A DNA stretch of 64,000 nt, from assembly GCF_017743995.1 (NCBI RefSeq), contig NZ_JAGHRB010000003.1, positions 186,001 through 250,000 of the forward strand, read 5' to 3'. Both the position numbers and the translations under genes were made by a program. Shown here piece by piece: positions 17,182 through 32,440 of this stretch (position 1 is its first letter; each line of letters opens with the position of its first letter). Under the pieces are notes generated by a model. The model was not told the DNA's origin. It saw nothing but the letters and a program-made list of their open reading frames with translations, and did not search any database. This DNA comes from Ruegeria sp. R13_0. Lineage in GTDB: Bacteria > Pseudomonadota > Alphaproteobacteria > Rhodobacterales > Rhodobacteraceae.

Positions 17182-17212
17182 ATGGTGGGGGTCTCCAGCG
17201 CTGGAAGGTCAA
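17182..17212 (-). promoter_or_regulatory. CueR/HmrR-type copper promoter A (to barrel gene)
   Basis: On the minus strand TTGACC (17212-17207), a 19-base spacer beginning TTCCAGCGCTGGA, then CACCAT (17187-17182). The over-long 19-base spacing and the central dyad are the mark of promoters activated by MerR-family proteins, and the TTCCAG/CTGGAA half-sites match those of CueR/HmrR. Confidence 0.75.
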
Positions 17213-17277
17213 GGCCGCCGGCCAGATTTGCGCTCGTCAAGCATGCATCAGCCGAAGGGGGTGCGGCAATAATGCGC

Positions 17278-17308
17278 TTGACCCTCCAGCGCTGGATTGT
17301 CGGACAAG
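17278..17308 (+). promoter_or_regulatory. CueR/HmrR-type copper promoter B (to ccmFGHI)
   Basis: TTGACC (17278-17283), 19-base spacer beginning CTCCAGCGCTGGA, then GACAAG (17303-17308). The -10 is poor, but the dyad is identical to site C and site A at its centre. It lies 31 bases before the ccmF start. Confidence 0.7.
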
Positions 17309-17339
17309 GCCGCAAAACCGGAAATCCGGAGGGATTGGA

Positions 17340-19334
17340 ATGATACCGGAAATCGGGCAGTTCGCCCTGGCGCTTGCCCTGGCCGTGTCCTTGGTGCAAA
17401 GCGTATTTCCCTTGATTGGAGCAGCACGGAACAATGTCATGTGGATGCGATCGGCATCTGCGACCTCGGTCCTGCTGACAGCGCTGGTTGCTATCGCCTT
17501 CGCCGCTCTGATGTGGTCCTTCGTGGTCAGCGATTTCACTGTGCTAAATGTGGCCAGCAATTCTCATTCGCTGAAACCGATGCTTTTCAAGGTGGCTGCG
17601 ACCTGGGGTAGCCACGAAGGGTCGCTGCTGTTGTGGATTCTGATATTGGTGATTTTCGGGCTGGGTGTGTCTCTGTTGGCTTGGAACATCCCACTGAAAC
17701 TCAAGGCGCGCACTCTGGCAGTGCAGGCCTGGATCAGCGCGGGGTTCCTGTCATTCATGCTGTTCACCTCGAACCCGTTTGACCGGGTGTTTCCGGCACC
17801 GCTGGATGGTCAGGATTTAAATCCGCTGTTGCAGGATGTCGGCCTGGCTATGCACCCGCCGTTCCTATACCTGGGTTACGTCGGCTTCTCTATCGTATTT
17901 TCTTTCGCCGTGGCTGCCCTGATTGAGGGGCGGGTCGATCCGGCATGGGCGCGGTGGGTCCGACCCTGGACATTGGCGGCCTGGGTGTTTCTGACACTTG
18001 GTATCGTTCTGGGCAGCTGGTGGGCCTATTACGAACTGGGTTGGGGCGGCTGGTGGTTCTGGGATCCGGTCGAGAATGTCTCGTTTATGCCCTGGCTTGC
18101 TGGCACAGCGCTGTTCCATTCGGCCATTGTGACCGAAAAGCGCGGCAGCTTCAAAAGTTGGACGATCCTACTGGCCGTTTTGACCTTCTCGTTGTCCTTG
18201 TTGGGGACATTCATTGTCCGCTCAGGCTTGCTTACATCGGTCCATGCGTTTTCGGTCGATCCCGAACGCGGCATTTACATCTTGGCGCTGTTGGCTGTCG
18301 CGATCGGTGGTTCATTGACGCTGTTTGCCATACGCGCACCGGAGATGGAGGGCGGCGGTCTTTTTGCCCCGATCAGCCGCGAGGCCGGTTTGCTTATTAA
18401 CAACCTGCTGCTGGCCACCGCAACGGCGACGGTTCTATTCGGTACGCTTTATCCGCTTTTGCTTGAGGCTGTGACAGGTGAAAAGATTTCGGTTGGACCA
18501 CCTTATTACAACGCCAGTTTCGTGCCGATCATGCTGGTTTTAGTCGTTGTAATGGGGATTGGGCCGCTGTTGTCATGGAAGCGGGCGGATTTGCGCGGTG
18601 TTCTGTCCCGGCTCAAATGGGTGGCCGGGGTTAGCCTGCTCGTAGCGTTGCTTGTGTGGTATCTGGATACCGGCGGCCCAGCCTTGGCGGTAGTGTCGAT
18701 CGGCCTTGCGGTTTGGTTGCTGGGCGCTGTGCTGACAGAGTGGGCCAGCCGAATTAAGCTGGGTGAGGCACCGTTGGCCGAGTCCCAGCGTCGGGCCCGC
18801 AGCCTACCGCGTTCTCATTACGGCATGGTCGTGGCCCATGCGGGGTTGGCTGTCTGTATGATCGGCTTTATCGGGTCCAGCGCTTGGAAATCCGAGGTCG
18901 TGACTTTTGCCGAGCCCGGAACACAGATTGAGATAGCAGGGTTCGACGTGCGTTTTGACGGTGTGGAACAGCTTCGCGGTCCGAACTATCTGTCTCGCGC
19001 GGCCACACTGACGGTATTTCGCGATGGCGCTTATGTCACCACGCTTCAACCCGAGCGCAGGGCCTATCTCGTGGCGGGTACCAGTACGACCGAGTCGGCA
19101 ATTCGAACGACGTTGGCAGGGGACCTTTACGCCTCGATATCGGAACCGGCGGCGGAATCAGAACAGAGCAAATGGACCCTGCGTATCTTGTATGAGCCAT
19201 TGGTGGTCTGGATCTGGATAGGTTCAGGATTGTTAGCATTTGGTGGTGTCTTGTCACTCTCCGATCGGCGTCTACGCGTCGGTGCACCACGAAAGCGGAC
19301 TGGGCAGAGCTCCGTTCCGGTGGCGGCGGAGTAG
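17340..19334 (+). CDS. ccmF: Cytochrome c-type biogenesis protein CcmF (heme lyase subunit)
   Basis: A 664-residue polytopic membrane protein, full length for CcmF. The WWD-type heme-handling motif reads WAYYELGWGGWWFWDPVEN (about residues 230-248), preceded by HPPFLYLGYVGFSI, with conserved His in HPP and in VTEKRGSFKSW-flanking loops. CcmF with CcmH/CcmI attaches heme covalently to the CxxCH motifs of apocytochromes at the periplasmic face. It is the first gene of ccmFGHI and starts with GGAGGGATTGGA before the ATG. The chaperone part of the pathway (ccmABCDE) is not in the window, so this set must work with genes elsewhere. It is preceded by a copper-type promoter, which is unusual. Confidence 0.95.
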   Translation: MIPEIGQFALALALAVSLVQSVFPLIGAARNNVMWMRSASATSVLLTALVAIAFAALMWSFVVSDFTVLNVASNSHSLKPMLFKVAATWGSHEGSLLLWILILVIFGLGVSLLAWNIPLKLKARTLAVQAWISAGFLSFMLFTSNPFDRVFPAPLDGQDLNPLLQDVGLAMHPPFLYLGYVGFSIVFSFAVAALIEGRVDPAWARWVRPWTLAAWVFLTLGIVLGSWWAYYELGWGGWWFWDPVENVSFMPWLAGTALFHSAIVTEKRGSFKSWTILLAVLTFSLSLLGTFIVRSGLLTSVHAFSVDPERGIYILALLAVAIGGSLTLFAIRAPEMEGGGLFAPISREAGLLINNLLLATATATVLFGTLYPLLLEAVTGEKISVGPPYYNASFVPIMLVLVVVMGIGPLLSWKRADLRGVLSRLKWVAGVSLLVALLVWYLDTGGPALAVVSIGLAVWLLGAVLTEWASRIKLGEAPLAESQRRARSLPRSHYGMVVAHAGLAVCMIGFIGSSAWKSEVVTFAEPGTQIEIAGFDVRFDGVEQLRGPNYLSRAATLTVFRDGAYVTTLQPERRAYLVAGTSTTESAIRTTLAGDLYASISEPAAESEQSKWTLRILYEPLVVWIWIGSGLLAFGGVLSLSDRRLRVGAPRKRTGQSSVPVAAE

Positions 19335-19338
19335 GGCA

Positions 19339-19908
19339 ATGAAACGTCTATTTGCACTGTTCCCAATTACGATTGCCGGCATCCTGGGTGCCTTCCTGCT
19401 ATGGGGACTGAATCCCGATCGCGATCCAAACGAAATCCCGTCTGTATTGATCTCGCAGCCGGTGCCTGAGTTCGACTTGCCGCCGGTCGAAGGGCTGGAT
19501 ACCCACGGGCTGTCCAGTACCGATCTGGTGGAAAATGACGGGTCAGCTCCGATCGTGGTCAACGTGTTTGCGTCCTGGTGCGTGCCCTGCCGGGCCGAAC
19601 ATGCGGTGCTGACGCGTATGGTACGCGATGAGGGCATTCGCCTGATGGGCATTAACTACAAAGACAAGCCGCAGGACGCGCGGAAATGGCTCGACGATCT
19701 GGGCAACCCTTATGAGCGCATCGGTTCCGACCTGGACGGCCGAGCCGGGATCGAATGGGGGATTTCCGGCGTGCCGGAGACCTTTGTGATTGATGGCGCG
19801 GGCAAGGTCGTATTCCGTTTTGTCGGCCCGGTGCTGGGCGGCGAGGCAATTTCAAAGATGCGCACCGCGCTGGATCAGGCGCGGGCGGCCGGAGGAGAGG
19901 CGTCATGA
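19339..19908 (+). CDS. ccmG: Thiol:disulfide interchange protein CcmG/DsbE
   Basis: A 189-residue membrane-anchored thioredoxin: N-terminal span LFALFPITIAGILGAFLLWG, then the thioredoxin fold with VNVFASWCVPCRAEH (active site WCVPC, about residues 78-82) and the CcmG-specific GINYKDKPQDARKWL and GVPETFVIDGAGKV (cis-Pro). It keeps the haem-binding cysteines of apocytochromes reduced in the periplasm. It lies four bases after ccmF and overlaps ccmH (ATGA). Confidence 0.94.
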   Translation: MKRLFALFPITIAGILGAFLLWGLNPDRDPNEIPSVLISQPVPEFDLPPVEGLDTHGLSSTDLVENDGSAPIVVNVFASWCVPCRAEHAVLTRMVRDEGIRLMGINYKDKPQDARKWLDDLGNPYERIGSDLDGRAGIEWGISGVPETFVIDGAGKVVFRFVGPVLGGEAISKMRTALDQARAAGGEAS

Positions 19909-20393
19909 TACGTCGCATTGTAATTACCGCGGTCACTCTGGCGATGCTGGTGTCGCAGCCGGCATTCGCGGTTGAGCCCGACGAGATACTTGCAGATCCG
20001 GTATTGGAAGAGCGGGCCCGGGCGATTTCGAAACAGGTGCGATGCGTGGTGTGCCAGAACCAAGACATCGACAGTTCTAACGCTGGCGTGGCGCGCGACC
20101 TTCGTCTGCTTGTGCGCGAACGGCTGGTGGCAGGCGACACGGACCAGCAGGTTATGGACTTTCTGGTTGCGCGTTATGGCGACTATGTTCTGTTCAACCC
20201 GCCATGGAAGCCATCAACTTACATTCTGTGGGTTGCGCCTATCGTCATCCTGGGGCTGGGTGGTATCGCGACTGCAGCGGTATTGACCCAAAATGCGCGC
20301 CGATATCGGAAGTCGCGAAAACAAGAGACGGAACGCGGCGCGAGCGAAGAACGGAATCCCGAAAACCATTCACTCACGGAGCCGCACGCATGA
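19905..20393 (+). CDS. ccmH: Cytochrome c-type biogenesis protein CcmH
   Basis: A 162-residue protein with a signal/anchor (VITAVTLAMLVSQPAFAVEP), the CcmH active-site motif VRCVVCQNQDIDSSNAGVAR (RCxxCQNQ), the YGDYVLFNPPWKPSTYILWV segment and a C-terminal membrane span. Its thiol pair passes electrons to apocytochrome c. Starts within the ccmG stop, and its own stop overlaps the ccmI start (ATGA). Confidence 0.94.
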   Translation: MIRRIVITAVTLAMLVSQPAFAVEPDEILADPVLEERARAISKQVRCVVCQNQDIDSSNAGVARDLRLLVRERLVAGDTDQQVMDFLVARYGDYVLFNPPWKPSTYILWVAPIVILGLGGIATAAVLTQNARRYRKSRKQETERGASEERNPENHSLTEPHA

Positions 20394-21538
20394 TCTGGAT
20401 TATCTTTTCATTCATGGCCGTGGCGGTGTTTCTGACGCTCGCCCTCTCCGGCCTGGGGCGCAAGACCTCGGACTTGTCGAGACGCGAAAGCGCCTCTGCC
20501 ATCTTTTCCGACCAGATCGGCGAAGTGGAGAAGGACCTGGAACGAGGAATTATCTCAGCCGAAGAGGCCAAGGCCGCCAGAGCCGAGATAGAACGTCGCC
20601 TGAAGGCGATTGACCGGCAATCGGACGACAAAGCGATAATGGGCCATTCCGGGCGTGCGCTGATTTTACTTGCCGCGCTGGTAGTTCCAGCGCTCGGAGC
20701 CGGTCTTTATTGGCAACTGGGTAGTCCCTACATCCCGAGCCAGCCATTTGCCCAACGCGAGGGGGAGCAGGCCGAAGCCCGTGAAATCGCCGACCTTGCC
20801 GTGCACCTGAAGTCGCGGCTTGAGGCGGATGAAACCGGCGGGCCAACCGAGGGATGGGTGTTGTTGGCTCAGACCTATATGCGGATGGGACGCTTTGGAG
20901 ATGCCGCAGACGCGTTCGAGGGGTTGCTGGACCGACCCAATGCGAATTCAGCGCTGGTGTCGCAATATGGCGAGGCGTTGGTCTATGCCGATGACGGTGT
21001 CGTTACGCCCAAGGCCGATCGGGCGTTTGAACGAGCCTTGGAACTGGACCCATCGAACCCAGCAGCGACATTCTACAAAGCCGTTGGTCTGGAGCAGGCT
21101 GGATCGCCTGATAAGGCCTATGACCTACTGAAGACGCGGATGGACGCCGAAGAGGAGTTCCGGCCATGGATGGAGAGTTTTGTGGCCCAGCTTAACCGCA
21201 TCGCCCCGTCGATCGGACGGGCTCCGGTGAATCTGGCGGCTTTTGCCCCTTCCATGCCCGGCCCAACTGCCGATCAGGTGGCGGCGGCCGAGGAGATGTC
21301 AGACGAAGACCGGCAGGCCTTCATCCGCTCGATGGTAGAACGGCTTGCGAGCCGGATGCAGGAAAACCCAGGCGATCTGGACGGCTGGATGCGGCTGGGC
21401 AACGCCTATTCGGTGCTGGGCGAGACCGACGGCGCCCGGAACGCCTATGGCAGGGCAAGGGATCTGGCGGATGACCTGCCGCAGGGGGATCCGCGCAAGG
21501 TGGCAATCGACCGGGCATTGCTGGAACTGGGGGGTTGA
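20390..21538 (+). CDS. ccmI: Cytochrome c-type biogenesis protein CcmI (apocytochrome chaperone)
   Basis: A 382-residue protein: two N-terminal membrane spans (IWIIFSFMAVAVFLTLALSG and ALILLAALVVPALGAGLYWQ) separated by a charged helical loop (VEKDLERGIISAEEAKAARA), followed by TPR-like repeats (GWVLLAQTYMRMGRFGDAAD, RAFERALELDPSNPAATFYK, GWMRLGNAYSVLGETDGARN). CcmI holds the C-terminus of apocytochrome c for the heme lyase. It ends the ccmFGHI unit. The start overlaps the ccmH stop. Confidence 0.93.
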   Translation: MIWIIFSFMAVAVFLTLALSGLGRKTSDLSRRESASAIFSDQIGEVEKDLERGIISAEEAKAARAEIERRLKAIDRQSDDKAIMGHSGRALILLAALVVPALGAGLYWQLGSPYIPSQPFAQREGEQAEAREIADLAVHLKSRLEADETGGPTEGWVLLAQTYMRMGRFGDAADAFEGLLDRPNANSALVSQYGEALVYADDGVVTPKADRAFERALELDPSNPAATFYKAVGLEQAGSPDKAYDLLKTRMDAEEEFRPWMESFVAQLNRIAPSIGRAPVNLAAFAPSMPGPTADQVAAAEEMSDEDRQAFIRSMVERLASRMQENPGDLDGWMRLGNAYSVLGETDGARNAYGRARDLADDLPQGDPRKVAIDRALLELGG

Positions 21539-21652
21539 TTCCCGCAGCCCGGCGTGGATCGGGCCGGCGCCGACTTCGCGCTGATGCCCAGTGAGCCATC
21601 TGGAAAATTCCGGTTTAGGCTATCGCATGCCGATCTTTAGGAGGTTGAGACC

Positions 21653-22111
21653 ATGAAAGTTGAAACGTTTTCTGATGTAATTGTCTGGACGCGGGAAATG
21701 CATCATTGGCTCGCCGAATGTTTGGCCCACTGTTCGACACAGTCAGAGCAGGAGTTGGCCAGGATGTTGCTTACCTACTTCGCCGATCATGAGGCTGCTC
21801 TGGAGAAAATCGTCGATGGTTTCGTGAAACGAGCCGATCCCAAAGCGCTCAACACCTGGGTATATGACTATTTGGGCAATGAGCCGATCGACCCACATCG
21901 CGCCTGCGACAGGCCGTTCGCACAGATGAGCGTCGATGAGATCTGCGAAGCGGTCTTCGATCTTCACAATCAGGTGATCGACTTATATCGGTATTTGCAC
22001 GGGCGTGCCGAGATACCCGATGCACGCGAACTCCTTCAGGCGCTACTGGATATGGAAGAGCACGAGACCATGCGTTTAGCGCAGCAGAGCAACCGCGTCC
22101 GGGATATGTGA
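21653..22111 (+). CDS. Small all-helical protein of unknown function, ferritin/hemerythrin-like composition
   Basis: A 152-residue soluble, acidic, helical protein with metal-ligand-like motifs on its helices (TREMHHWLAECLAHCS, LTYFADHEAALEKIV, DMEEHETMRLAQQ). I know similar sequences from gamma- and alphaproteobacteria but no established function. The His and Glu spacing suggests a metal-binding four-helix bundle, which is inference only. The start follows TAGGAGG 7 bases upstream. It converges with scsB, whose stop is 10 bases away, and it has no copper box of its own. The 110 bases before it hold nothing recognised. Confidence 0.6.
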   Translation: MKVETFSDVIVWTREMHHWLAECLAHCSTQSEQELARMLLTYFADHEAALEKIVDGFVKRADPKALNTWVYDYLGNEPIDPHRACDRPFAQMSVDEICEAVFDLHNQVIDLYRYLHGRAEIPDARELLQALLDMEEHETMRLAQQSNRVRDM

Positions 22112-22120
22112 ACTCCGGGG

Positions 22121-24247
22121 TCAGGATCCGCTTTCCACGGCTCCGCCCGCAATCGGCGCGGCCTGTTCCATCGCGTCGAGAATGGCGTTCGTGGTCAATA
22201 TCTCTGGCAGGGCGATGCCTTCGGGGGCCGACGGGCCGTAGACGATGTTGAAGGGGATCCCGAACCGTCCATTGTCGTCAAGGAAACGGGCGATCACATC
22301 GTCGGGGCGGGTCCAGTCGGCCTGCATCGGAATTGCTTTGTCCGATTGCAGTGTTGCCAGAACCTCGCCGCGTTCCAGCACCAGCGCTTTGTTGGCCTTG
22401 CAGGTCAGACACCAGTCGGCTGTGACATCGACGAAAACCACCTCGCCGCGCGACACAAGGCGGGCGATTTCGGAGCGGCTGAAGGTAATCCATGGAATCT
22501 CTCCGGCTGCCTCAAGCAGCCTGGACCGGTCTTTGCCGGCAATCGCAACCGGTGCGGCAAACGCTGCGGTCAGCGTCAGCAACAGGGCTGTCCAGCGCAA
22601 AACGGGTGGCATCGTCGTACTTTTCCAGATCAATAGGACCAGAACAGTTGCAGCCAGCACGGTAGCAGTTGCAGCAGTGTCTCCGGCCACCCCGATCATC
22701 ACCCAGACCAACCAGCCGATCGTGGTTAGCAGTGCCGCCGACAGGGCCCATTTTAATCCCACCATCCAACGCCCCGGTTTAGGCAGAGCGGTGGTGAGTT
22801 TCGGGTGCACTGCAACCAGCAAGTAAGGAATGGCCAGCCCGACCCCCATTGCGGTGAAGATCGCCACGATATCCACCGGTCGGCCGGTCAAGGCAAAGGC
22901 CACCGCCGTGCCGAGGAAGGGGGCCGAGCAGGGCGTCGCCAGAACTGCTGAAAAAGTTCCGGTCAGGAAATCCCCGACCAGCGACACGCGGCCCTTTTCG
23001 ACATGGGCCAGCCGGGTGTTCAGCGACTGCGGCAGCGTGATCTCGAACAGGCCCGCGAGGCTGGCTGCAAAAACCGCCAGCACCACGATCATCACCGCAA
23101 GGAAAAGCGGATTCTGGAACTGGATGCCCCAGCCGACGGAATAGCCCAGCGACCGCGCCGCAATGGTGATAGCCGCCAACAGCCACATGAATGTCAGGAT
23201 TCCGGCTGCCGAAGCCAGGAACCCGGCGCGAATCTGAGCCGCAGAGCGGTCGCGAGCCTTTACCGCCGAGGAAAGCTTGATCGAAAGCACTGGCAGTACG
23301 CAGGGCATGACATTCAGAATCAACCCGCCACCCACCGCCAGCAAAATGATCCAGACCAGCGCGCTGGCTGAAGTTTCGGCGGCCGCGATCTCATATGGTG
23401 GCGGGGTAGGGGGAGAGTCGGTACGGGGCGAAAACTCGGCCACGCGGTTGGTGTCGGTAACCGTGACGGACAAGGAGGGGGGGTCCTGTGCCAGAGCGAG
23501 GACCGGGAACTGCACCCATAGCTGACGCCTGTCGCCAGCGAGCCGGATGTCGGGTGCACCAAACGCGGTATCACGTCCCATGTCGGGAAAGACATCAGGC
23601 GCATCAAAGGGCAGGTCGCTGGTGAAATTCAGCGTCAGCATCTCGGACACGGTATCCAGGGTCGCGGCATCGGACTTCATTCCGCTTGTGTTTCCCGTGG
23701 TTGGCACCCGCGACAGAAAGGCATTTATAAGCCGGGCCGAGTCCTGATCCCGACCCGTTCCCTGAGTCAGCGACAAGTCCAGCGAAAACTCGACCGGCAC
23801 ACAGATATCGGAACAGATCAGCGTTGTCACAGCGGCCTTCAAGTCAACTGGCGCTCCGGGGTTCTCGAGTGTGACGGTCAGCGGAAAGACCACTTCGTCC
23901 TTGTACCCGAAATTCTCGATCCCGAAGGCGCGAAAACGGATCGGCGCGGGCCAGTGAAACTGTACGTCGCTGACGTTTTGCGAGCCGTTCCAAGTGATCT
24001 TGGGCGGAATTCCCACCTCACCAGGCGACTTCCAGTAGGTTTTCCAATCTTCGCCCAGTTTCAGATGCAGTCCTGCAGTGATCGTCTTGACGTCAGGCGC
24101 GATCCCGTCCTGCGCGGTAATTATGTGTGCGACCAGGGGCTCTGATTCATACGCTTGGGATGTAGCTGCAAGGCTTGTCCCGGCGGAAGTCTGGCCAAAG
24201 ATTAACCCCAAGATCATAATACATAAATTTAGGAGTGTTCTTGCCAT
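22121..24247 (-). CDS. scsB: ScsB/DsbD-like thiol:disulfide reductase
   Basis: A 708-residue protein in three parts. A signal peptide and a DsbD-alpha-like periplasmic domain (residues about 30-280, with CSDICVPVEFSLDL holding the Cys pair). A CcdA-like eight-span membrane domain (MPCVLPVLSIKLSSAVK and TPCSAPFLGTAVAF, the two membrane Cys motifs). A C-terminal thioredoxin domain (VDVTADWCLTCKANKALV). It moves reducing power from cytoplasmic thioredoxin to the periplasm, and the ScsB subtype is tied to copper tolerance. I place the start at 24247, because a GTG at 24274 would lie right at the -10 of copper promoter C, which leaves no leader. Confidence 0.9.
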   Translation of the reverse strand: MARTLLNLCIMILGLIFGQTSAGTSLAATSQAYESEPLVAHIITAQDGIAPDVKTITAGLHLKLGEDWKTYWKSPGEVGIPPKITWNGSQNVSDVQFHWPAPIRFRAFGIENFGYKDEVVFPLTVTLENPGAPVDLKAAVTTLICSDICVPVEFSLDLSLTQGTGRDQDSARLINAFLSRVPTTGNTSGMKSDAATLDTVSEMLTLNFTSDLPFDAPDVFPDMGRDTAFGAPDIRLAGDRRQLWVQFPVLALAQDPPSLSVTVTDTNRVAEFSPRTDSPPTPPPYEIAAAETSASALVWIILLAVGGGLILNVMPCVLPVLSIKLSSAVKARDRSAAQIRAGFLASAAGILTFMWLLAAITIAARSLGYSVGWGIQFQNPLFLAVMIVVLAVFAASLAGLFEITLPQSLNTRLAHVEKGRVSLVGDFLTGTFSAVLATPCSAPFLGTAVAFALTGRPVDIVAIFTAMGVGLAIPYLLVAVHPKLTTALPKPGRWMVGLKWALSAALLTTIGWLVWVMIGVAGDTAATATVLAATVLVLLIWKSTTMPPVLRWTALLLTLTAAFAAPVAIAGKDRSRLLEAAGEIPWITFSRSEIARLVSRGEVVFVDVTADWCLTCKANKALVLERGEVLATLQSDKAIPMQADWTRPDDVIARFLDDNGRFGIPFNIVYGPSAPEGIALPEILTTNAILDAMEQAAPIAGGAVESGS

Positions 24248-24277: not shown

Positions 24278-24308
24278 TCTCTGCCAGATTCCAGCGCTGG
24301 AGGGTCAA
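24278..24308 (-). promoter_or_regulatory. CueR/HmrR-type copper promoter C (to scsB)
   Basis: On the minus strand TTGACC (24308-24303), 19-base spacer beginning CTCCAGCGCTGGAA, then CAGAGA (24283-24278). The dyad core is identical to promoters A and B. It fixes the scsB start at 24247 rather than further upstream. Confidence 0.72.
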
Positions 24309-24510: not shown

Positions 24511-24822
24511 TTATTGCCGGGGTACCGTGTTCGGCCCCACGGGGACGTCGGTTGCCTTCGGCCGATCCGATTCCGAGTTGGTCGAATGGCAGGATTTTCC
24601 CATCGCCTTGTGCAACAAGAAATGTGCTCCAACGCACAGGATCAACGGTGCGAACAGACTCAAAGAGTCAGAAAGCCCGCCAACCATTCCGCCGGCGATA
24701 AAGTAGAGAGCGATCGGCGTCACCATGACAATGCAACAAGACATCATGCCCCATTTCATGATCTTGCCACCGGTAACCGGTGTTGCCGCTTGCGGCGCGT
24801 CTGCGGTCTGCTTTTCTTTCAC
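24511..24822 (-). CDS. DUF2933-like small membrane protein (copy 1)
   Basis: A 103-residue protein with two membrane spans (MMSCCIVMVTPIALYFIAGG, LFAPLILCVGAHFLLHKAMG). The second span ends in HFLLHKAMGKSCH, matching the C-terminal His motif of DUF2933 proteins, a family that accompanies heavy-metal ATPases. The GTG at 24822 is preferred over a TTG at 24834 because GGAG lies six bases before it. A paralog (HFLMHRGHGKH) follows the second copper ATPase at 52564. Driven by copper promoter D. The function is unknown. Confidence 0.75.
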   Translation of the reverse strand: MKEKQTADAPQAATPVTGGKIMKWGMMSCCIVMVTPIALYFIAGGMVGGLSDSLSLFAPLILCVGAHFLLHKAMGKSCHSTNSESDRPKATDVPVGPNTVPRQ

Positions 24823-24852
24823 GTTCAGCTCCAAAATTGGGATTGGAGACCT

Positions 24853-24883
24853 CTGGTAGCGCCTTCCCGCGATGGAAGGTCAA
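24853..24883 (-). promoter_or_regulatory. CueR/HmrR-type copper promoter D (to DUF2933 and lipoprotein)
   Basis: On the minus strand TTGACC (24883-24878), 19-base spacer beginning TTCCATCGCGGGAA, then TACCAG (24858-24853), a good -10. The predicted start of transcription is just ahead of the ribosome site of the DUF2933 gene. The rest of the gap to the next gene at 25199 shows nothing further that I recognise. Confidence 0.75.
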
Positions 24884-26419: not shown

Positions 26420-26450
26420 TTGACCTTCCAGCGCAGGAACCGGGCATACG
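26420..26450 (+). promoter_or_regulatory. CueR/HmrR-type copper promoter E (to the cytochrome/oxidase operon)
   Basis: TTGACC (26420-26425), 19-base spacer beginning TTCCAGCGCAGGAA, then CATACG (26445-26450). Transcription would begin near 26457, 30 bases before the L,D-transpeptidase ATG. Confidence 0.76.
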
Positions 26451-26486: not shown

Positions 26487-27077
26487 ATGGCAGGCATGAA
26501 ACGGAGCAAAGAAAGAAAGGTTGTTACGCGACGTGAAGTGATTGCCGCGTTAGCTGCGACGACGCTTTTTCCAGCACCTGCCGTTTGGGCCCAATCAACG
26601 GCAACTGAGGGGACGCGCCGCAATGTTTCCTCATTCCGCGTTGCTAAATGGCAGGACCACTTTGATACCTTAAAAAACGGGGTAATCCTGTCCGATACAC
26701 AGTCCAAGGTCATGCAATATTGGTCAGAAGACGAAAGCGTTTACCGGATGTATCCGACCAGTGTACCGCTCACGGAAGACCTTACAAGGCTGGGTTACAC
26801 CACGGTTATTCGCAAGGTCGAAGGGCCATCTTGGCGACCAACGCCGGCAATGAAAGAGCGCAATCCAGCATGGCCTGACTATGTAGGCCCGGGTCCTGAG
26901 AATCCTCTGGGGACACATGCGCTCTATTTGAGCTGGCAATACTACCGCATCCACGGCACCAACGACACGCGCAAGATCGGGAGAAGATCCTCCAACGGCT
27001 GCATTGGCTTGTACAACGAGCAGATTGCGGAATTGTTCGAACTGGCCACTGTGGGCACTCAGGTAAAACTGATCTGA
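26487..27077 (+). CDS. Exported L,D-transpeptidase, YkuD family (copy 2)
   Basis: A 196-residue protein with a Tat-like signal (VTRREVIAALAATTLFPAPA) and a YkuD domain: TVIRKVEGPSWRPTPAMKER, ENPLGTHALYLSWQYYRIHG (His), then GRRSSNGCIGLYN (catalytic Cys). It is a distinct subfamily from copies 1 and 3. It is the first gene of the operon controlled by copper promoter E, ahead of the cytochromes and oxidase. The start could also be the ATG nine bases later. Literature reports that copper inhibits these enzymes in Escherichia coli, so a copper-induced copy makes sense as compensation; this link is inference. Confidence 0.87.
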   Translation: MAGMKRSKERKVVTRREVIAALAATTLFPAPAVWAQSTATEGTRRNVSSFRVAKWQDHFDTLKNGVILSDTQSKVMQYWSEDESVYRMYPTSVPLTEDLTRLGYTTVIRKVEGPSWRPTPAMKERNPAWPDYVGPGPENPLGTHALYLSWQYYRIHGTNDTRKIGRRSSNGCIGLYNEQIAELFELATVGTQVKLI

Positions 27078-27144: not shown

Positions 27145-27594
27145 ATGGATAAACTTACACTCTTGATCGGCGGAGTAGTGATCGCAGGCGCCGCCGCGTT
27201 CGTCTACAACTTAAATCAGCAACCAACAGGTCACTCGATGACGCCGCCCGATACGTCAGCACTGGAGCCAGGAGACCCAATCGAAAACGTCAATCTGCCG
27301 GAACAGCTAACCGAATTTGCGGCCGTCGGCAAAGTGGCATTCGACGCCAAATGCTCGGCGTGCCATGGCGCGAATGCAACGGGTCTGGAAGGCCTTGCAC
27401 CACCTTTGGTGCATAAAATCTATGAACCAAGCCACCATTCCGACGAGTCATTTTATGTGGCAGTCCAGAATGGAGTTCGGGCACACCATTGGAAGTTCGG
27501 CAATATGCCGCCGGTCGATGGCTTGACCCGTGCGGATGTGAAAGGCATCGTGGCGTATATCAGAGAGCTGCAGCAGGAAAACGGGATTTTCTGA
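27145..27594 (+). CDS. Membrane-anchored cytochrome c (class I)
   Basis: A 149-residue protein: N-terminal membrane anchor (LTLLIGGVVIAGAAAFVYNL), a linker, then a cytochrome fold with the heme motif CSACHG (about residues 70-75), PPLVHKIYEPSHHSD and a Met ligand in KFGNMPPVDGLT. It carries electrons on the periplasmic side of the membrane. It lies second in the copper-controlled operon, 68 bases after the L,D-transpeptidase, and would be matured by the CcmFGHI system encoded nearby under the same type of promoter. Confidence 0.88.
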   Translation: MDKLTLLIGGVVIAGAAAFVYNLNQQPTGHSMTPPDTSALEPGDPIENVNLPEQLTEFAAVGKVAFDAKCSACHGANATGLEGLAPPLVHKIYEPSHHSDESFYVAVQNGVRAHHWKFGNMPPVDGLTRADVKGIVAYIRELQQENGIF

Positions 27595-27608: not shown

Positions 27609-27935
27609 ATGAGCAGTGCAATTCGTTACATCATACTGTCAATGGTGCTGACCATTGGCGGGCTGCTTGTGACGGCCGATTCTGCTCATGCACATGGCAG
27701 TGGTTCACAGCACGTGATTGACCAAACGGACTCAGCGGACGTTGAGCATGTCAAGCAGGGTCATCCCGGACATTGTCATGGCGGAACGATTTGCAACGCT
27801 GTTGGTCTATTTTCGATGGGTCCACCACCGCCTGGCCCCCAAGATACTGAACAAAGATACTCGATCCCTCGAGCCCAATACCGGGTTCTCGGTATCGCGG
27901 CGTTTGACCCACCGCCGCCGCGTGTCCTGATCTGA
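27609..27935 (+). CDS. Small secreted His/Cys protein, DUF2946-like
   Basis: A 108-residue exported protein: signal peptide to SAHAHGSGSQH, a His-rich section (VEHVKQGHPGHCHGGTIC, two Cys four apart), then a hydrophobic patch (NAVGLF) and a proline-rich C-terminus (FDPPPPRVLI). The layout matches two other small proteins in the window (35533 and 46824) and DUF2946-like proteins that accompany copper genes. It may bind copper in the periplasm, which is inferred from composition. It lies in the copper-controlled operon, 14 bases after the first cytochrome. Confidence 0.6.
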   Translation: MSSAIRYIILSMVLTIGGLLVTADSAHAHGSGSQHVIDQTDSADVEHVKQGHPGHCHGGTICNAVGLFSMGPPPPGPQDTEQRYSIPRAQYRVLGIAAFDPPPPRVLI

Positions 27936-27990
27936 CCAGTCGAATTGCGCTCAACTTGGGCGCGTCGAAGCAGACGACAAGGACAAAACA

Positions 27991-28542
27991 ATGAACATTC
28001 TAAAATTGACCACAGGCGTTGCCCTGGTTTCTCTGTTCGCAGCCGCCGCCCTGGCGCATGGTGGCGCAACCGGCATCGTCAAAGAACGCATGGATGGTAT
28101 GTCCGCGATGAAGGACAGCATGAAGATCCTTACGCCGATGATGCAGGGGAAAACGCCCTACAATGCGCAAACGGTACGAAGCGAGGCCAAGAAAATCGGG
28201 CGTCACGCTGGCGAGAGCATGACAAAGCTGTTTCCAGAGGGATCTGATGGCAAACCCTCGGAGGCCAAATCGGAGATCTGGCAGGATTGGGGTTCATTTG
28301 CAGAGTTAGCCAGGCAGTTGGAAACCTACTCTGAAGGCCTTGTGCTTGCGGCGGACAACGGGTTGATGATGTCCGGGTCGGGCCATGGTTCGGGCATGAT
28401 GGGCGGCGCATCCATGATGGGTGCCGGAATGATGGGCGGCAGTCCAAACCAGGCACAACTTTCTGAAATGCCGGCAGATGGTGTGTTCATGATGCTGAGC
28501 CAGACATGCTCGGCATGTCACACGCAGTTTCGGTCGGAATAG
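27991..28542 (+). CDS. Cytochrome c556/c' family protein with Met-rich insert
   Basis: A 183-residue exported protein with signal peptide (LVSLFAAAALAHGG) and a four-helix cytochrome c' fold with the heme-binding motif at the C-terminus, SQTCSACHTQFRSE, as usual for c556/c'. Unusually, a Met/Gly/His-rich insert (SGSGHGSGMMGGASMMGAGM) lies just before the last helix and could bind Cu(I). Third gene of the cytochrome group in the operon and ten bases ahead of the diheme cytochrome. Confidence 0.86.
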   Translation: MNILKLTTGVALVSLFAAAALAHGGATGIVKERMDGMSAMKDSMKILTPMMQGKTPYNAQTVRSEAKKIGRHAGESMTKLFPEGSDGKPSEAKSEIWQDWGSFAELARQLETYSEGLVLAADNGLMMSGSGHGSGMMGGASMMGAGMMGGSPNQAQLSEMPADGVFMMLSQTCSACHTQFRSE

Positions 28543-28551
28543 GAATGCGTC

Positions 28552-29451
28552 ATGAGACCGATATTCCGATTGGGCCTTGCTGCCGCCGTAACGGCGTCAG
28601 CGGGACTTGTTGCCGTGATGGCTTGGCCAATTGGCCAGCCCTTACAAGCTCTCGACATTCAGGGTGACGTTAACCGCGGGGCTTATCTGGCAAGGGCAAG
28701 TGGCTGTATCGCTTGCCACACAGATTTTGCCAAAGGGGGCGCGCCCTTGGCCGGTGGGGTGGAGTTGGATACCCCGTTCGGCACGCTCTTTTCACCGAAC
28801 CTGACCACAGATCCCGATCACGGGATCGGTGACTGGACAATCGAGGAGTTTGCTCGCGCTGTGCGTCAAGGCGTGTCACCCGGCGGACAACCCTACTACC
28901 CGGCCTTTCCTTATCCGTTCTATGCCAATTTCACGGATCAGGATATCGCCGATCTCTGGGCCGCCTGGCAAACGGTTGCACCGGTAGCGGAACCGTCAAA
29001 AGAGCAGGAAATGGCGTTCCCCTTCAATCAGAGATGGGGCCTGAAGCTGTGGCGCGCGGCTTTTCTGGAACCACCCCGTACTGATCCCGTGCCGGGCAAT
29101 GACGAAGTGTGGAACCGGGGTCGGCTACTGGTCGAAGGTGCTACGCATTGTGCGGCCTGCCACACCGGGAGGAACCTGGCTGGCGCAAGAAATTCGGACA
29201 CGGAACACTTCAAAGGAAGTGACTCCCTGCCGGGCGGTGACAAGGCACCGGCCATCGACTTTGAGACCCTGCAAAAGCGTGGTTGGACGGTAGATGATTT
29301 GGCCTACGCGTTGCGCACCGGCGTCATGCCTGATGGCGATGTCTTCGGCGGCGCCATGGGAGAGGTCGTAAACTATGGCACCAGCTTTCTGACAGACGAA
29401 GACCGGAAGGCAATGGCGACCTATCTGCTGGATGTGCACGACGGGGGATAA
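28552..29451 (+). CDS. Diheme cytochrome c
   Basis: A 299-residue exported protein with two class I cytochrome domains: first heme motif SGCIACHTDFAKGGAP (about residue 42) with Met ligand region further on, and second heme motif HCAACHTGRNLAGARN (about residue 198), then LRTGVMPDGDVFGGAMGEVV. It resembles the cytochrome subunits of periplasmic dehydrogenases. It lies 40 bases before the multicopper oxidase gene, and could pass electrons to or from the oxidase; that is inference. Confidence 0.88.
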   Translation: MRPIFRLGLAAAVTASAGLVAVMAWPIGQPLQALDIQGDVNRGAYLARASGCIACHTDFAKGGAPLAGGVELDTPFGTLFSPNLTTDPDHGIGDWTIEEFARAVRQGVSPGGQPYYPAFPYPFYANFTDQDIADLWAAWQTVAPVAEPSKEQEMAFPFNQRWGLKLWRAAFLEPPRTDPVPGNDEVWNRGRLLVEGATHCAACHTGRNLAGARNSDTEHFKGSDSLPGGDKAPAIDFETLQKRGWTVDDLAYALRTGVMPDGDVFGGAMGEVVNYGTSFLTDEDRKAMATYLLDVHDGG

Positions 29452-29490
29452 TCGAGTGAGAGATCAAATTTTCTTTGGAGGGAAGTCCTC

Positions 29491-30861
29491 ATGAAGCTCA
29501 ATCGCAGGCAATTCGTTGCAGGCACGTCGGCACTAATCGCAGTGCCGACTATCGGGAGGGCGGCTACCGCCCCCCGAATAATCGAGGCGCGTTCAGGATT
29601 GGCACGTGTTGCCCCCGACAGCTATCCTGAAACCGAGATATGGGGATATGATGGCGGTGTTCCGGGCCCCGAAATTCGTGCCAGGCAGGGCGAAACGGTT
29701 CGCCGGACACTCCTGAACTCACTGCCTCAGCCTACGGCAATCCATTGGCACGGATTGCGGGTTCCGAACAATATGGACGGGGTGCCGGGCCTTACGCAGG
29801 AGGCTGTACCAACCGGCGGCGAATTTCAGTATGACTTGCCTCTGAAGGACGCGGGGACCTTCTGGTATCACTCTCACAACCAGTCAACGGAACAAGTGGC
29901 CAGGGGCCTTTACGGCGCGTTCATCGTCGACGAAACGGACCCGCCGGACACGGACCATGACATCACGATCCTTCTGGATGATTGGCGGTTGGGTAAGGAC
30001 GCTCAAATAGTAGATGATTTTGGTGCAATGCATGATTGGACCCATGCAGGTCGCATGGGTAACTACGTTCACGCACGTATATCGCCCATGACCGAAGTTT
30101 TGACGAACCAGCGTTTGCGAATTCGAATGGTCAACGTGGCAACTGATCGGATCATGTATGTCTCAGTAGGTGGCGCAAACGGGAAACTGGTCGCTTATGA
30201 TGGCATGCCTGTAAGGCAGCCAGAGGATTTTGAAACCCTTGTTTTCGGGCCTGCACAGCGAGCAGACTTAATTGTTGATGTCACAGCGGAATCGAACGAA
30301 TCCGTTCAAATAACTCTTCACGAACGCGATGAATCGTTTGTCATCGCTGAGATTCCGGTTTCGGGAAGCGGCACATCTGCTAACCGCGGTGTGATCGCAG
30401 CCCTGCCACCCAACCCTGCTTCTTTTCTCGAAGATGTTTCTGACGCTTTGACAGTTCCATTGGTGATGGAAGGCGGGGCGATGGGCGGACTGCGTCAAGG
30501 CACTTTTAACGGCCGGGTCATGAGCACCAATGAATTGGTCCAGGAAGGGCAGATCTGGACATTCAACGGTGTCGCCGGGTTACCTGAAAACCCACTTGCT
30601 GCCGTTTCGCGTGGCGACATAGTCCGGATTCAGATGCAGAACGACACCGTCTTTCCGCACGCTATGCACTTGCACGGGACGCACTTTCAGGAAGTTCTGC
30701 CGAACGGCAGCCTGGGGCCGCTGCGGGACACAATCCTGGTTGACCGGATAGAAACGCGGGAGATTGCGTTCGTTGCGGATAACCCGGGGGACTGGCTGTT
30801 TCATTGCCACATGCTGTCGCATCAGGCCGCTGGTATGAAGACCTGGCTGAGCGTGGCGTGA
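29491..30861 (+). CDS. Multicopper oxidase, CueO/CopA type
   Basis: A 456-residue periplasmic oxidase with a Tat signal (KLNRRQFVAGTSALIAVP). All four copper-ligand motifs are present: AIHWHGLRVPN, TFWYHSHNQSTEQ, HAMHLHGTHFQE and LFHCHMLSHQAAGMKTW (ending in the type 1 Met). It oxidises Cu(I) to the less toxic Cu(II) with O2. Compared with E. coli CueO, a long Met-rich insert is missing, but there are Met and His clusters (RISPMTEVL, MGGLRQG). It is expressed in the copper-controlled operon, its stop overlapping the next cytochrome start by one base. Confidence 0.92.
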   Translation: MKLNRRQFVAGTSALIAVPTIGRAATAPRIIEARSGLARVAPDSYPETEIWGYDGGVPGPEIRARQGETVRRTLLNSLPQPTAIHWHGLRVPNNMDGVPGLTQEAVPTGGEFQYDLPLKDAGTFWYHSHNQSTEQVARGLYGAFIVDETDPPDTDHDITILLDDWRLGKDAQIVDDFGAMHDWTHAGRMGNYVHARISPMTEVLTNQRLRIRMVNVATDRIMYVSVGGANGKLVAYDGMPVRQPEDFETLVFGPAQRADLIVDVTAESNESVQITLHERDESFVIAEIPVSGSGTSANRGVIAALPPNPASFLEDVSDALTVPLVMEGGAMGGLRQGTFNGRVMSTNELVQEGQIWTFNGVAGLPENPLAAVSRGDIVRIQMQNDTVFPHAMHLHGTHFQEVLPNGSLGPLRDTILVDRIETREIAFVADNPGDWLFHCHMLSHQAAGMKTWLSVA

Positions 30862-31334
30862 TGAACAAGAGCGCGGCGAAATGGGTGTCACTGGCTGCTG
30901 TGGTGATCATTGTCGCGGTCGCTGGCTGGGGCCTGGGTGGGCGTGCGCAGAACAGTTCATCGGCGGATTCGGCACGTGGTGCAGTTTTGTACGCCGAAAA
31001 CTGCGCGTCATGCCACGGGGCAGATTTGGAGGGTCAGCCGGATTGGCAAACACCTGATCCGGATGGCGTCTTGCGGGCGCCCCCGCATGACCGAACCGGG
31101 CACACCTGGCATCACGGCGACAAGCTGTTGTTCGACTATACAAAGTTTGGCGGGGACCAAACTTTGAAACAGATGGGTGTCGCTGACGTCAAAAGCGGCA
31201 TGCCAGGCTTCGGGGACACTCTGTCGGATCAGGATATCTGGGACATCCTCGCCTTCATCAAGGAGAGTTGGCCGGATCGGGAACGCAAGCTGCAAGAGCA
31301 ACGCACCGAAGCAGAACAAACGGAAGGAAACTGA
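30861..31334 (+). CDS. Membrane-anchored cytochrome c
   Basis: A 157-residue protein with an N-terminal span (WVSLAAVVIIVAVAGWGLGG) and a class I cytochrome domain: heme motif CASCHGADLEGQPDW (about residue 49), WHHGDKLLFDYTKFGG, SGMPGFGDTLSDQDIW with a likely Met ligand. The last residues are a charged helix (ERKLQEQRTEAEQTEG). Starts within the stop of the oxidase (TGATG), so it is cotranslated and may be the oxidase's electron partner. Confidence 0.88.
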   Translation: MNKSAAKWVSLAAVVIIVAVAGWGLGGRAQNSSSADSARGAVLYAENCASCHGADLEGQPDWQTPDPDGVLRAPPHDRTGHTWHHGDKLLFDYTKFGGDQTLKQMGVADVKSGMPGFGDTLSDQDIWDILAFIKESWPDRERKLQEQRTEAEQTEGN

Positions 31335-31335
31335 T

Positions 31336-32064
31336 GTGAAACGAATACTTGCAGGCTTAGTCGCTATCGCCATGTCGATTGGCATTCCTATGGCACGCGC
31401 CGACGAGCTGTCTGACTCCGATGTAAAACGGCTGGCTCTCGAAGCCATTTTGGAAAACCCTGAGATCATCATGCAGGCGATTCAACTGCTTCAACAGCGC
31501 GAGGATCAGGCAAAAGCCGAAGCAATTGGAAGCGTCTTGGAAAATCAGCGTGAATTGCTGGAACAGGATCCGAATGCGCCTGTCATCGGAAACCCGGAAG
31601 GCGATGTAACCGTGGTCGAGTTTTTTGACTACAACTGCCCATATTGCAAACGCGCTGCCCCGGTCGTGAAAAACGTAATCGCAGGCGATTCCGATGTACG
31701 AGTTGTCTATCGAGAATGGCCCATACTCGGAGAAGGTTCCGACTTCGCGGCACGCGCCGCGCTTGCCTCACGTAATCAGGGAAAATATGAAGAATTTCAT
31801 TGGGCGCTTATGGCTCTGAACGGTCGTGCCACTGAGGCCAGTGTACTGAAAGTTGTCCGTGAACTCGGCCTGGACGAGGATCAATTGCGCGCAGATATGG
31901 AGGCGCCGGAAGTCGACGCACATATTCAGGTGTCCATGGAATTGGCCCGACAGCTTGGCTTCAGTGGCACCCCCTCGTTTGTGATTGGAGATGCTCTTGC
32001 CCCGGGGCTGATCGCCGAAGATGAAATGACCCGGCTAATCGAGGCAGTCAGAGACGCAAGATAA
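31336..32064 (+). CDS. DsbA-family periplasmic oxidoreductase
   Basis: A 242-residue exported protein. It has a signal peptide (ILAGLVAIAMSIGIPMARAD), a charged N-terminal helical segment (residues 25-80) and a DsbA thioredoxin domain with the active site FFDYNCPYCKRAAPVV (CPYC), then FSGTPSFVIGDALAPG with the cis-Pro loop. It forms or rearranges disulfides in periplasmic proteins; the ScsC/Scs-type partner of ScsB is a plausible role. The start is a GTG at 31336 right after the cytochrome stop. The last gene of the operon; converges with copZ. Confidence 0.9.
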   Translation: MKRILAGLVAIAMSIGIPMARADELSDSDVKRLALEAILENPEIIMQAIQLLQQREDQAKAEAIGSVLENQRELLEQDPNAPVIGNPEGDVTVVEFFDYNCPYCKRAAPVVKNVIAGDSDVRVVYREWPILGEGSDFAARAALASRNQGKYEEFHWALMALNGRATEASVLKVVRELGLDEDQLRADMEAPEVDAHIQVSMELARQLGFSGTPSFVIGDALAPGLIAEDEMTRLIEAVRDAR

Positions 32065-32099
32065 AACCAAGGCGGCGACAGAATGCGCCCCTAAGTGTC

Positions 32100-32297
32100 T
32101 CATGCGACCGTGGCTTCGTATCCCTCGGACTTCAGAGCAGCAAGGATTTGATCAAGTGGATTGGCGCTTAAGACACGTACCCTGCGGTTTTCCATGTCAA
32201 AGTCCAACTGTGCGGAGGAATCCACCGTGGCAACGGCTTTTTCGATTGCTGACTTGCAGTGCCCGCAGCTCATATCCGGGATATTTAGGGTCGTCAT
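32100..32297 (-). CDS. copZ: Copper chaperone CopZ (HMA domain)
   Basis: A 65-residue heavy-metal-associated domain: NIPDMSCGHCKSAIEKAV (MxCxxC metal site), with LDFDMENRRVRVLSANPLDQ and the end LKSEGYEATVA. It ferries Cu(I) in the cytoplasm to the P-type ATPase. The ATG at 32297 is chosen from the promoter position (F) and the size of other CopZ proteins. It is divergent from copA with a 173-base gap that holds two back-to-back copper promoters. Confidence 0.93.
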   Translation of the reverse strand: MTTLNIPDMSCGHCKSAIEKAVATVDSSAQLDFDMENRRVRVLSANPLDQILAALKSEGYEATVA

Positions 32298-32325
32298 GGA
32301 TGTTTGCTCCTGTTTTCCGTTGTCC

Positions 32326-32356
32326 CGGCTAAAGTATTCCAGCACAGGAAGGTCAA
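32326..32356 (-). promoter_or_regulatory. CueR/HmrR-type copper promoter F (to copZ)
   Basis: On the minus strand TTGACC (32356-32351), 19-base spacer beginning TTCCTGTGCTGGAA, then TAGCCG (32331-32326). Confidence 0.78.
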
Positions 32357-32409
32357 GTCGTGAAAATTGGATCGCCAAAATTAGTGGAAAAGAAAGTCAA
32401 CCCCATCAC

Positions 32410-32440
32410 TTGACCTTCCACTTGCTGGAACCCTTATGTT
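32410..32440 (+). promoter_or_regulatory. CueR/HmrR-type copper promoter G (to copA-hmrR)
   Basis: TTGACC (32410-32415), 19-base spacer beginning TTCCACTTGCTGGAA, then TATGTT (32435-32440), the best -10 of the seven. Being the copA promoter with the regulator gene in the same unit, it is the reference site for the regulon. Confidence 0.82.

What the first reader, a model, noticed from the sequence alone, without database searches (positions are those of the whole stretch)
17182..32440. One copper regulon of seven MerR-type promoters, including ccmFGHI and a cell-wall enzyme
Seven promoters share TTGACC, exactly 19 bases, and a TTCCAGCGCTGGAA-like dyad, each correctly placed before a unit: barrel protein (17182-17212), ccmFGHI (17278-17308), scsB (24278-24308), DUF2933/lipoprotein (24853-24883), cytochrome/oxidase operon (26420-26450), copZ (32326-32356) and copA-hmrR (32410-32440). 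The regulator hmrR sits in the last one. Copper control of copA and copZ is established in the family; tying in late cytochrome c maturation, ScsB reduction, four cytochromes and an L,D-transpeptidase in one plasmid regulon is what I have not seen described.
Basis: partly seen in the sequence, partly recalled or inferred. Interest (0 to 1): 0.9.

Follow-up and report, generated by a model that had tools for sequence, protein, structure and literature searches.

The report
Copper-sensor promoters with shortened dyads
A marine-bacterium plasmid carries seven copper-sensor-type promoters in front of genes for pumping and oxidising copper and for rebuilding cell-surface enzymes, and six of them have an apparent binding site one base pair shorter than the textbook one, a form that recurs in related bacteria.

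Summary
But they are two operator classes. Only copA-hmrR has the textbook CueR/HmrR dyad (TTCC-N7-GGAA). The other six, before ccmFGHI, scsB, the cytochrome/oxidase operon, copZ, DUF2933 and a barrel gene, have TTCC-N6-GGA: the same half-sites, with what reads as the central base pair missing. In the 4.68-Mb genome the N6 pattern occurs only at these six places (about 0.3 expected). In 49 copZ/copA loci of relatives, found without reference to spacing, copA sites are N7 in 46 of 46, while copZ sites are 24 N7, 19 N6, 1 N5. The -10 register stays at 19 bp, and the N6 centre is a pyrimidine-purine step in 30 of 30. N6 and N7 interchange several times on the HmrR tree with no evident change in the recognition region, so one Cu(I) sensor most likely reads both. 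All four related Ruegeria plasmids examined carry the N6 sites. In other genera copZ and the cytochrome/L,D-transpeptidase operon are the commonest N6 members; ccmF and scsB are patchier. Nothing was measured. New variant of a known kind.

The parts
17182..17212 (-). N6-class site (TTGACC-TTCC-AGCGCT-GGA, 19-bp spacer) before the barrel gene
15994..17103 (-). barrel-like protein (Pfam Phenol_MetA_deg)
17278..17308 (+). N6-class site before ccmFGHI
17340..19334 (+). ccmF, plasmid copy; the genome's other ccmF is 52% identical
19339..19908 (+). ccmG (DsbE-type thioredoxin, CVPC)
   Evidence: relatives annotated alike
19905..20393 (+). ccmH (CVVC)
20390..21538 (+). ccmI
22121..24247 (-). scsB / DsbD-like reductase (Pfam DsbD_N, DsbD_TM, Thioredoxin_7; below the NCBIfam DsbD cut-off)
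24278..24308 (-). N6-class site before scsB
24511..24834 (-). DUF2933 protein (open frame from 24834; start probably the GTG at 24822)
24853..24883 (-). N6-class site before DUF2933
26420..26450 (+). N6-class site before the L,D-transpeptidase/cytochrome/oxidase operon
26487..27077 (+). L,D-transpeptidase (YkuD) with twin-arginine-like signal and catalytic-Cys motif
27145..27594 (+). c-type cytochrome, one CXXCH
27991..28542 (+). cytochrome c'-type protein, one CXXCH
28552..29451 (+). cytochrome c with two CXXCH
29491..30861 (+). multicopper oxidase (Pfam; below the NCBIfam CopA-oxidase and CueO cut-offs), twin-arginine-like signal
30861..31334 (+). cytochrome c, one CXXCH
31372..32064 (+). 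ScsC-like DsbA-family protein (CPYC, ScsC_N domain)
32100..32297 (-). copZ-like metal-binding protein (best NCBIfam match CopZ, below cut-off)
32326..32356 (-). N6-class site before copZ
32410..32440 (+). canonical N7 HmrR/CueR site before copA-hmrR, better -10 (TATGTT)
32471..34981 (+). copA, copper-translocating P-type ATPase (TIGR01511 over cut-off)
34997..35383 (+). hmrR, CueR-type Cu(I)-responsive MerR regulator

Best explanation
The island is one copper regulon driven by HmrR, a CueR-type MerR regulator encoded in its copA-hmrR operon. HmrR sits on dyads inside over-long (19-bp) promoter spacers; with Cu(I) bound it kinks and untwists the DNA so that RNA polymerase can use both promoter elements. 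Two operator forms are in use: the textbook N7 form at copA-hmrR, and a contracted N6 form, equivalent to the N7 dyad without its central base pair, at copZ, the L,D-transpeptidase/cytochrome/multicopper-oxidase/ScsC operon, ccmFGHI, scsB, DUF2933 and the barrel gene. Because the promoter spacer stays at 19 bp while the half-sites are one base pair closer, the -10 lies one base pair further from the gripped half-site. I infer a tighter off-state, a weaker on-state or a higher copper threshold than at copA. Functionally the N6 set looks like a copper-inducible envelope repair and oxidation kit: a Cu(I) oxidase, cytochromes, and fresh copies of periplasmic enzymes that copper is reported to poison (late cytochrome c maturation, an L,D-transpeptidase), with thiol proteins ScsB and ScsC. 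Shown: the sites, their rarity, conservation, spacing classes and gene order. Inferred: HmrR binding to N6, copper induction, the tuning effect, the physiological role.
For: N6 hits in the whole genome are exactly these six. HmrR meets the CueR equivalog model and aligns with E. coli CueR over residues 1-126, metal-site cysteines included. In 49 copA loci taken from a spacing-blind search, copA sites are 46 of 46 N7 while copZ sites are 24 N7, 19 N6 and 1 N5 (Fisher 7e-8 for N7 against N6, not corrected for relatedness), so an established CueR target is served by either form. The -10 register is 19 bp in both (A at hexamer position 2: copA N7 61/61, copZ N6 28/30, copZ N7 26/28). The central step of N6 copZ dyads is pyrimidine-purine in 30/30; copA N7 centres carry such a step in 61/61, the place where MerR regulators kink DNA (PMC9909328, passages). 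The N6/N7 label needs at least 8 changes on the HmrR tree, 5 of them forced by well-supported branches, and the recognition region looks the same in both groups by eye. In L053 the copA-hmrR operon itself is preceded by an N6 site. N6 fronts the cytochrome operon in other genera.
Against: No binding or expression data. ccmF and scsB membership is patchy outside Ruegeria (N6 before ccmF in 3 of 7 and before scsB in 1 of 7 loci of other genera, most of them chosen because they hold N6). In the Actibacterium and Aliiroseovarius plasmids (L062, L063) the cytochrome operon, ccmF and scsB have no strict site, and a response regulator with a probable sensor kinase lies near ccmF. N6 -10 hexamers are weak, and several cytochrome-operon promoters of relatives have a better hexamer two bases further on. 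The label is clustered on the HmrR tree (0 of 500 shuffles as low). Published CueR/HmrR signals are all N7 (PMC1526738). The pyrimidine-purine centre is partly a consequence of dyad symmetry.
Confidence: 0.72

Rival explanations
1. A second regulator reads the N6 sites (another MerR-family protein, or an unrelated dimer), and HmrR controls only copA.
For: The half-sites are one bp closer, which would normally change the phase between the two monomers; the six N6 sites form a matrix that excludes copA; the genome holds 12 MerR_1-domain matches, including two more in the window and one at C33:257752 just outside it.
Against: The copZ promoter, an established CueR target, appears as N6 or N7 in different relatives with unchanged -35/-10 register. 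L053 has N6 before copA-hmrR itself. Of the five MerR proteins of this genome scanned, only HmrR and the C7 copy pass the CueR model; the two others in the window and the one at C33:257752 are below every metal-specific cut-off. No N6 site lies near the two in the window. Limit: no systematic search for other regulators shared by all N6 loci was made.
Confidence: 0.13
2. Only copA and copZ are truly controlled by copper; the other N6 sites are inherited promoter-like sequences with little effect, because their -10 elements are poor.
For: Weak -10 hexamers; patchy retention of ccmF and scsB sites outside Ruegeria.
Against: Site plus -10 region is conserved against diverged flanks between the window and two relatives (216/231 in the site, 88/110 in the unselected next ten columns, 193/440 in the upstream flank). 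N6 recurs before the cytochrome operon in other genera.
Confidence: 0.12
3. The units are mainly controlled by a two-component system such as CusRS, and the dyads are relics.
For: A sensor kinase gene lies at 43003-44433; L062 and L063 carry a response regulator and an ATP-binding protein (probable kinase) near ccmF and lack strict N6 sites there; L060 has a similar pair about 11 kb from ccmF.
Against: The dyads are kept in the window's lineage and in other genera; no such pair is annotated next to ccmF in L059, L060, L061 or L064.
Confidence: 0.05

Closest known systems
CueR/HmrR copper regulons (E. coli copA-cueO; actP-hmrR operons), Permina et al. 2006, PMC1526738 (passages seen)
   Same: MerR-family Cu(I) sensor, 19-bp promoter spacer, TTCC/GGAA dyad, exporter-hmrR operon order, copper chaperone and multicopper oxidase among targets
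   Different: Published signals are ACCTTCCC-(5)-TGGAAGGT and ACCTTCCAG-(3)-CTGGAAGG, both N7; six sites here are N6. The regulon here adds ccmFGHI, scsB/scsC, four cytochromes and an L,D-transpeptidase
Candidate CueR sites before cytochrome c553/c554 genes in Vibrio (PMC1526738, passages)
   Same: c-type cytochrome genes behind a CueR-type site
   Different: Cytochrome genes only in the passages seen, no maturation genes mentioned
RSP_2889, CueR homologue of Rhodobacter sphaeroides (Peuser et al. 2011; only the title seen, in reference lists of PMC7558416, PMC10141476 and PMC8456105)
   Same: CueR-type regulator of copper genes in a relative of this organism
   Different: Not readable here; whether its targets include an N6 site is unknown to me
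Copper damage to c-type cytochrome assembly (Durand et al. 2015; title only, in the reference list of PMC7558416)
   Same: Names the process that an inducible ccmFGHI copy would protect
   Different: By its title it concerns toxicity, not induction of a spare maturation module
Scs (suppressor of copper sensitivity) system of Salmonella (recalled)
   Same: ScsB-like and ScsC-like proteins present
   Different: Here split over two units behind N6 sites and joined to cytochrome genes

Membership tests
CueR/HmrR regulon | regulator is a CueR-type MerR protein | tested here: met
   TIGR02044 at 160 bits, cut-off 147.4; aligns with E. coli CueR over 1-126 of 128
CueR/HmrR regulon | metal-site cysteine pair near the C-terminus | tested here: met
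   CAGDHRPDC aligned with CPGDDSADC of E. coli CueR
CueR/HmrR regulon | 19-bp spacer between -35 and -10 | tested here: met
   7 of 7 in the window; register kept in relatives' copA and copZ; the N6 hexamers are weak
CueR/HmrR regulon | operator half-sites separated by 7 bp (ACCTTCC-N7-GGAAGG) | tested here: not met
   met by copA only; six sites have N6
CueR/HmrR regulon | regulator binds the sites and activates with Cu(I) | not testable with these tools
   no binding or expression assay
System I cytochrome c maturation, late module (CcmFGHI) | CcmF, CcmG, CcmH, CcmI present in order | tested here: met
   annotated so in L059
System I cytochrome c maturation, complete | heme-delivery part with CcmE in the island | tested here: not met
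   the genome's only CcmE match is on contig C4, beside the other ccmF; CcmABCD were not searched
Scs copper-tolerance proteins | ScsB with DsbD_N, DsbD_TM and thioredoxin parts; ScsC with ScsC_N | tested here: met
   Pfam over cut-off; the NCBIfam DsbD model is below its cut-off

The most novel reading that the evidence does not exclude
CueR-type regulators of this family read two operator geometries on purpose: an N7 dyad centred on a base pair at copA, and an N6 dyad centred on a pyrimidine-purine step at copZ and envelope-repair operons, with the 19-bp promoter spacer held fixed. The one-bp contraction is a selected tuning device that gives the two target groups different copper thresholds or on/off ratios from one regulator, and it has switched repeatedly at copZ.
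Probability: 0.5. Interest if true: 0.78.

Novelty: new variant of a known kind. Interest (0 to 1): 0.63.

Why it matters
MerR-type activation is explained by exact DNA geometry: a fixed grip on two half-sites inside a 19-20-bp spacer. A natural, recurrent operator with one base pair fewer between the half-sites and an unchanged promoter spacer is a ready-made test of that geometry, with matched natural N6/N7 versions at the same gene in many relatives. It also would widen the copper response from pumping and oxidation to replacing copper-poisoned envelope enzymes, and it means that CueR/HmrR scans using only the N7 signal would miss targets in this family.

Tried and rejected
Tried: a 21-bp spacer for the cytochrome operon, because several relatives have TATGAT-like hexamers two bases further on. 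Rejected as the general rule: in the copZ sets the near-invariant A lies at spacer 19 for both N6 and N7. It remains possible for some cytochrome-operon promoters.

Tried: a second MerR gene in L041 near scsB as the N6 reader. Set aside: it lies beside what look like mercury-resistance genes (that naming is mine), and no hmrR-like hit lies next to scsB in the other loci.

Tried: N6 sites outside the family. A stricter N6 pattern was found in 4 of 143 genomes of the class, the window's genome included. One (L201) lies before a CueR-like gene (below the CueR cut-off, without the metal-site cysteine pair) and a cytochrome gene; the two others have no relative of the island proteins in the 3 kb read.

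Literature: none of the listings, nor the passages I opened, was seen to describe an N6 CueR operator or a copper-controlled ccmFGHI. In one search no paper held all three of 'copper resistance', 'plasmid' and 'ccmFGHI' (papers with more terms are listed first). The library holds open-licence papers only, the lists were capped, and the Rhodobacter CueR paper could not be read.

Sampling limits: loci L039-L058 were chosen because they hold N6 sites, so gene counts from them are biased. The spacing-blind set is L137-L192: 56 places picked by me from the hits (whose pattern asks for two divergent TTGACC elements, and which does not match the window's own longer gap). I left out what look like copies of mobile elements, places already fetched, hits that looked like chance, and a few others (such as G124:C13) for no recorded reason; near-copies remain in it (L170 and L182, for example). 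Of the 56, 49 gave a copA with a TTGACC-like element. L193-L196 were picked and are not in that set. Near-identical rows (L059, L064, L048) were dropped from the base counts and from the tree.
Full report
What was checked. Each has TTGACC, a TTCC/CTCC half-site, a GGA(A) half-site and a hexamer 19 bp from TTGACC. The hexamers are CACCAT, GACAAG, CAGAGA, TACCAG, CATACG, TAGCCG and, at copA, TATGTT; their second base is A in 7 of 7. Each lies before a gene at 28-36 bp (78 bp for the barrel gene). The window is part of contig C33 (354 kb) of a 4.68-Mb genome; its nearest named relatives are three Ruegeria plasmids at 96-97% identity.

Not chance. TTGACCYTCC-N6-GGA occurs six times in the window and zero times in 200 order-1 resamples. 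In the whole genome it occurs at exactly the same six places, against one match of the reversed control pattern and about 0.28 expected from a uniform model. Leave-one-out matrices score each of the six at 21.7-30.7 bits, with non-sites at 13.5 bits at most. A looser pattern with N7 spacing and three mismatches was far less telling (8 found, 3.3 expected).

Two classes, not one. The copA site does not fit: held out, it scores 5.4 bits and ranks 39th. Its half-sites are 7 bp apart, as in the published CueR (ACCTTCCC-5-TGGAAGGT) and HmrR (ACCTTCCAG-3-CTGGAAGG) signals (PMC1526738, passages). The other six are 6 bp apart. The N7 pattern occurs twice in the genome: here, and on contig C7, about 2.5 kb from the genome's second CueR gene.

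The regulator. The product of 34997-35383 passes the NCBIfam CueR equivalog model (160 bits, cut-off 147.4) and aligns with E. coli CueR over residues 1-126, with the two C-terminal cysteines in register. The genome has 12 MerR_1-domain matches, all read. Five were scanned against NCBIfam: this one and the C7 copy (158.7 bits) pass the CueR model; the two others in the window and the one at C33:257752 are below every metal-specific cut-off. The other seven were read only; by eye none looks like CueR (one resembles SoxR).

The non-cop sites are kept in related plasmids. L059 and L064 carry all seven; L061 with L200 (strain YS9) carries all seven, with TTGACT at ccmF; L060 (strain B32, about 81% DNA identity over its best matching place, which covers 32% of the query) carries all six N6 sites, its copA-hmrR not being in the 40 kb read. 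A further genome of the same genus, G043, has six N6 and two N7 matches (places not viewed). Over 11 promoter pairs between the window and L060 or the G193 loci (L041, L042), identity is 216/231 in the TTGACC-dyad part (partly fixed by selection on the pattern), 88/110 in the next ten columns, which were not selected, and 193/440 in the 40 bases upstream.

The N6 form across the family. Of 394 family genomes, 130 have at least one N6 match (some are chance, since the reversed control also matches, and the match list was cut). The divergent copZ-copA arrangement gives a spacing-blind test. A search for two divergent TTGACC elements 14-44 bp apart matched 80 of 394 genomes; 56 places were fetched, and 49 gave a copA with a TTGACC-like element. 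Their copA sites are N7 in 46 of 46; their copZ sites are 24 N7, 19 N6 and 1 N5; where both could be classed, 22 loci are N7/N7, 19 are N7/N6 and 1 is N7/N5. Fisher's exact test of copA (46 N7, 0 N6) against copZ (24 N7, 19 N6) gives 7e-8, not corrected for relatedness. Over all 68 scored loci, including those chosen for N6, copA is 64 N7 and 1 N6, and copZ 33 N6, 28 N7 and 1 N5; five further TTGACC-like elements on the copZ side had no classable second half-site.

Geometry. After dropping three near-copies, A at the second hexamer base at spacer 19 is found in copA N7 61/61, copZ N6 28/30 and copZ N7 26/28. So the promoter spacer is held while the half-sites move together. The two central bases of N6 copZ sites are CG 19, TG 7, CA 4: a pyrimidine-purine step in 30 of 30 (19 of 19 in the spacing-blind set). 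The central three bases of copA N7 sites contain such a step in 61 of 61. Part of this follows from dyad symmetry, but the equally symmetric GC and AT centres are absent. N6 therefore reads as TTCCAGY-RCTGGAA, the N7 form TTCCAGY-N-RCTGGAA without its middle base pair. MerR regulators kink DNA by about 90 degrees at the dyad centre and shorten the -35/-10 distance by about 7 A and 72 degrees (PMC9909328, passages); a flexible centre step fits that mechanism. By the same numbers, an N6 site gripped in the same way would leave the -10 about one base pair further away than an N7 site does. That is the basis for my prediction of a tighter or weaker promoter; it is inference.

One reader or two. 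On a tree of 54 HmrR proteins the copZ label (27 N6, 20 N7, 7 unlabelled) needs at least 8 changes, 5 of them forced by well-supported branches; 500 shuffles average about 15.5 and none is as low, so the label is clustered but recurrent. L158 (N6) and L172 (N7) are close sisters. The alignment shows no residue in the recognition region that separates the groups by eye (no formal test). In L053 the copA-hmrR operon itself is preceded by an N6 site. I take one regulator reading both forms as most likely.

What the regulon does. The order ccmFGHI, scsB, DUF2933, L,D-transpeptidase, cytochromes, multicopper oxidase, DsbA-family protein, copZ is kept in large part in Actibacterium and Aliiroseovarius plasmids too (the latter with extra genes between ccmI and scsB), with copA and cueR following in the former and the stretch read ending at the start of copA in the latter. 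The plasmid ccmFGHI is a partial second set: another ccmF (52% identical) and the only ccmE match lie on contig C4. CcmG, CcmH, ScsB and ScsC keep CXXC motifs, and both L,D-transpeptidases keep a catalytic-Cys motif. Copper is reported to hit c-type cytochrome assembly (Durand et al. 2015) and to inhibit LD-transpeptidases (Peters et al. 2018); for both papers I saw only the titles in reference lists. A copper-induced spare set of such enzymes, plus a Cu(I) oxidase with its cytochromes, is the reading I favour.

Limits. In loci of other genera, N6 lies before the transpeptidase or first cytochrome gene in L039, L042, L044, L046-L049, L051, L053, L055 and L056 but not in L058, L062 or L063 (11 of 14); before ccmF in 3 of 7 (L039, L042, L044/45; not L049, L057, L062, L063); before scsB in 1 of 7 (L041; not L039, L044, L049, L051, L062, L063); and before DUF2933 in 2 of 5 (L039, L049; not L041, L062, L063) (all but L062 and L063 were chosen for holding N6). 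So copZ and the cytochrome operon are the commonest N6 members, and ccmF and scsB are best supported within Ruegeria. No binding, expression or phenotype was measured.

Noticed in passing
window 61492-61707: Cobalamin riboswitch (Rfam RF00174, 110 bits) upstream of a CbtA-type cobalt transporter gene at 61842-62615.
   Followed up: no
window 36001-41372: CusB-like adaptor with four CusF-domain stretches, followed by an open frame annotated as an RND permease in relatives, next to hmrR but without an N6 or N7 match; a sensor kinase gene lies at 43003-44433.
   Followed up: no
L201:1501-2420: In another family of the class, an N6 site lies before a CueR-like regulator that lacks the metal-site cysteine pair, followed by a cytochrome similar to the window's last one.
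   Followed up: partly
L062, L063: Actibacterium and Aliiroseovarius plasmids keep the gene block but have a response regulator and probable kinase near ccmF and no strict N6 sites; copZ has N7 in both.
   Followed up: partly
hits (G165, G086, G231, G035, G349, G239, G229, G255, G237, G161, G219): The same or nearly the same copZ-copA intergenic sequence recurs in 11 genomes of different genera, which suggests a recently spread mobile copper element.
   Followed up: no
L061 and L064: The multicopper oxidase is annotated as a shorter open reading frame than in the window.
   Followed up: no
L143: One copZ-side site with N5 spacing, possibly a further contraction or chance.
   Followed up: no
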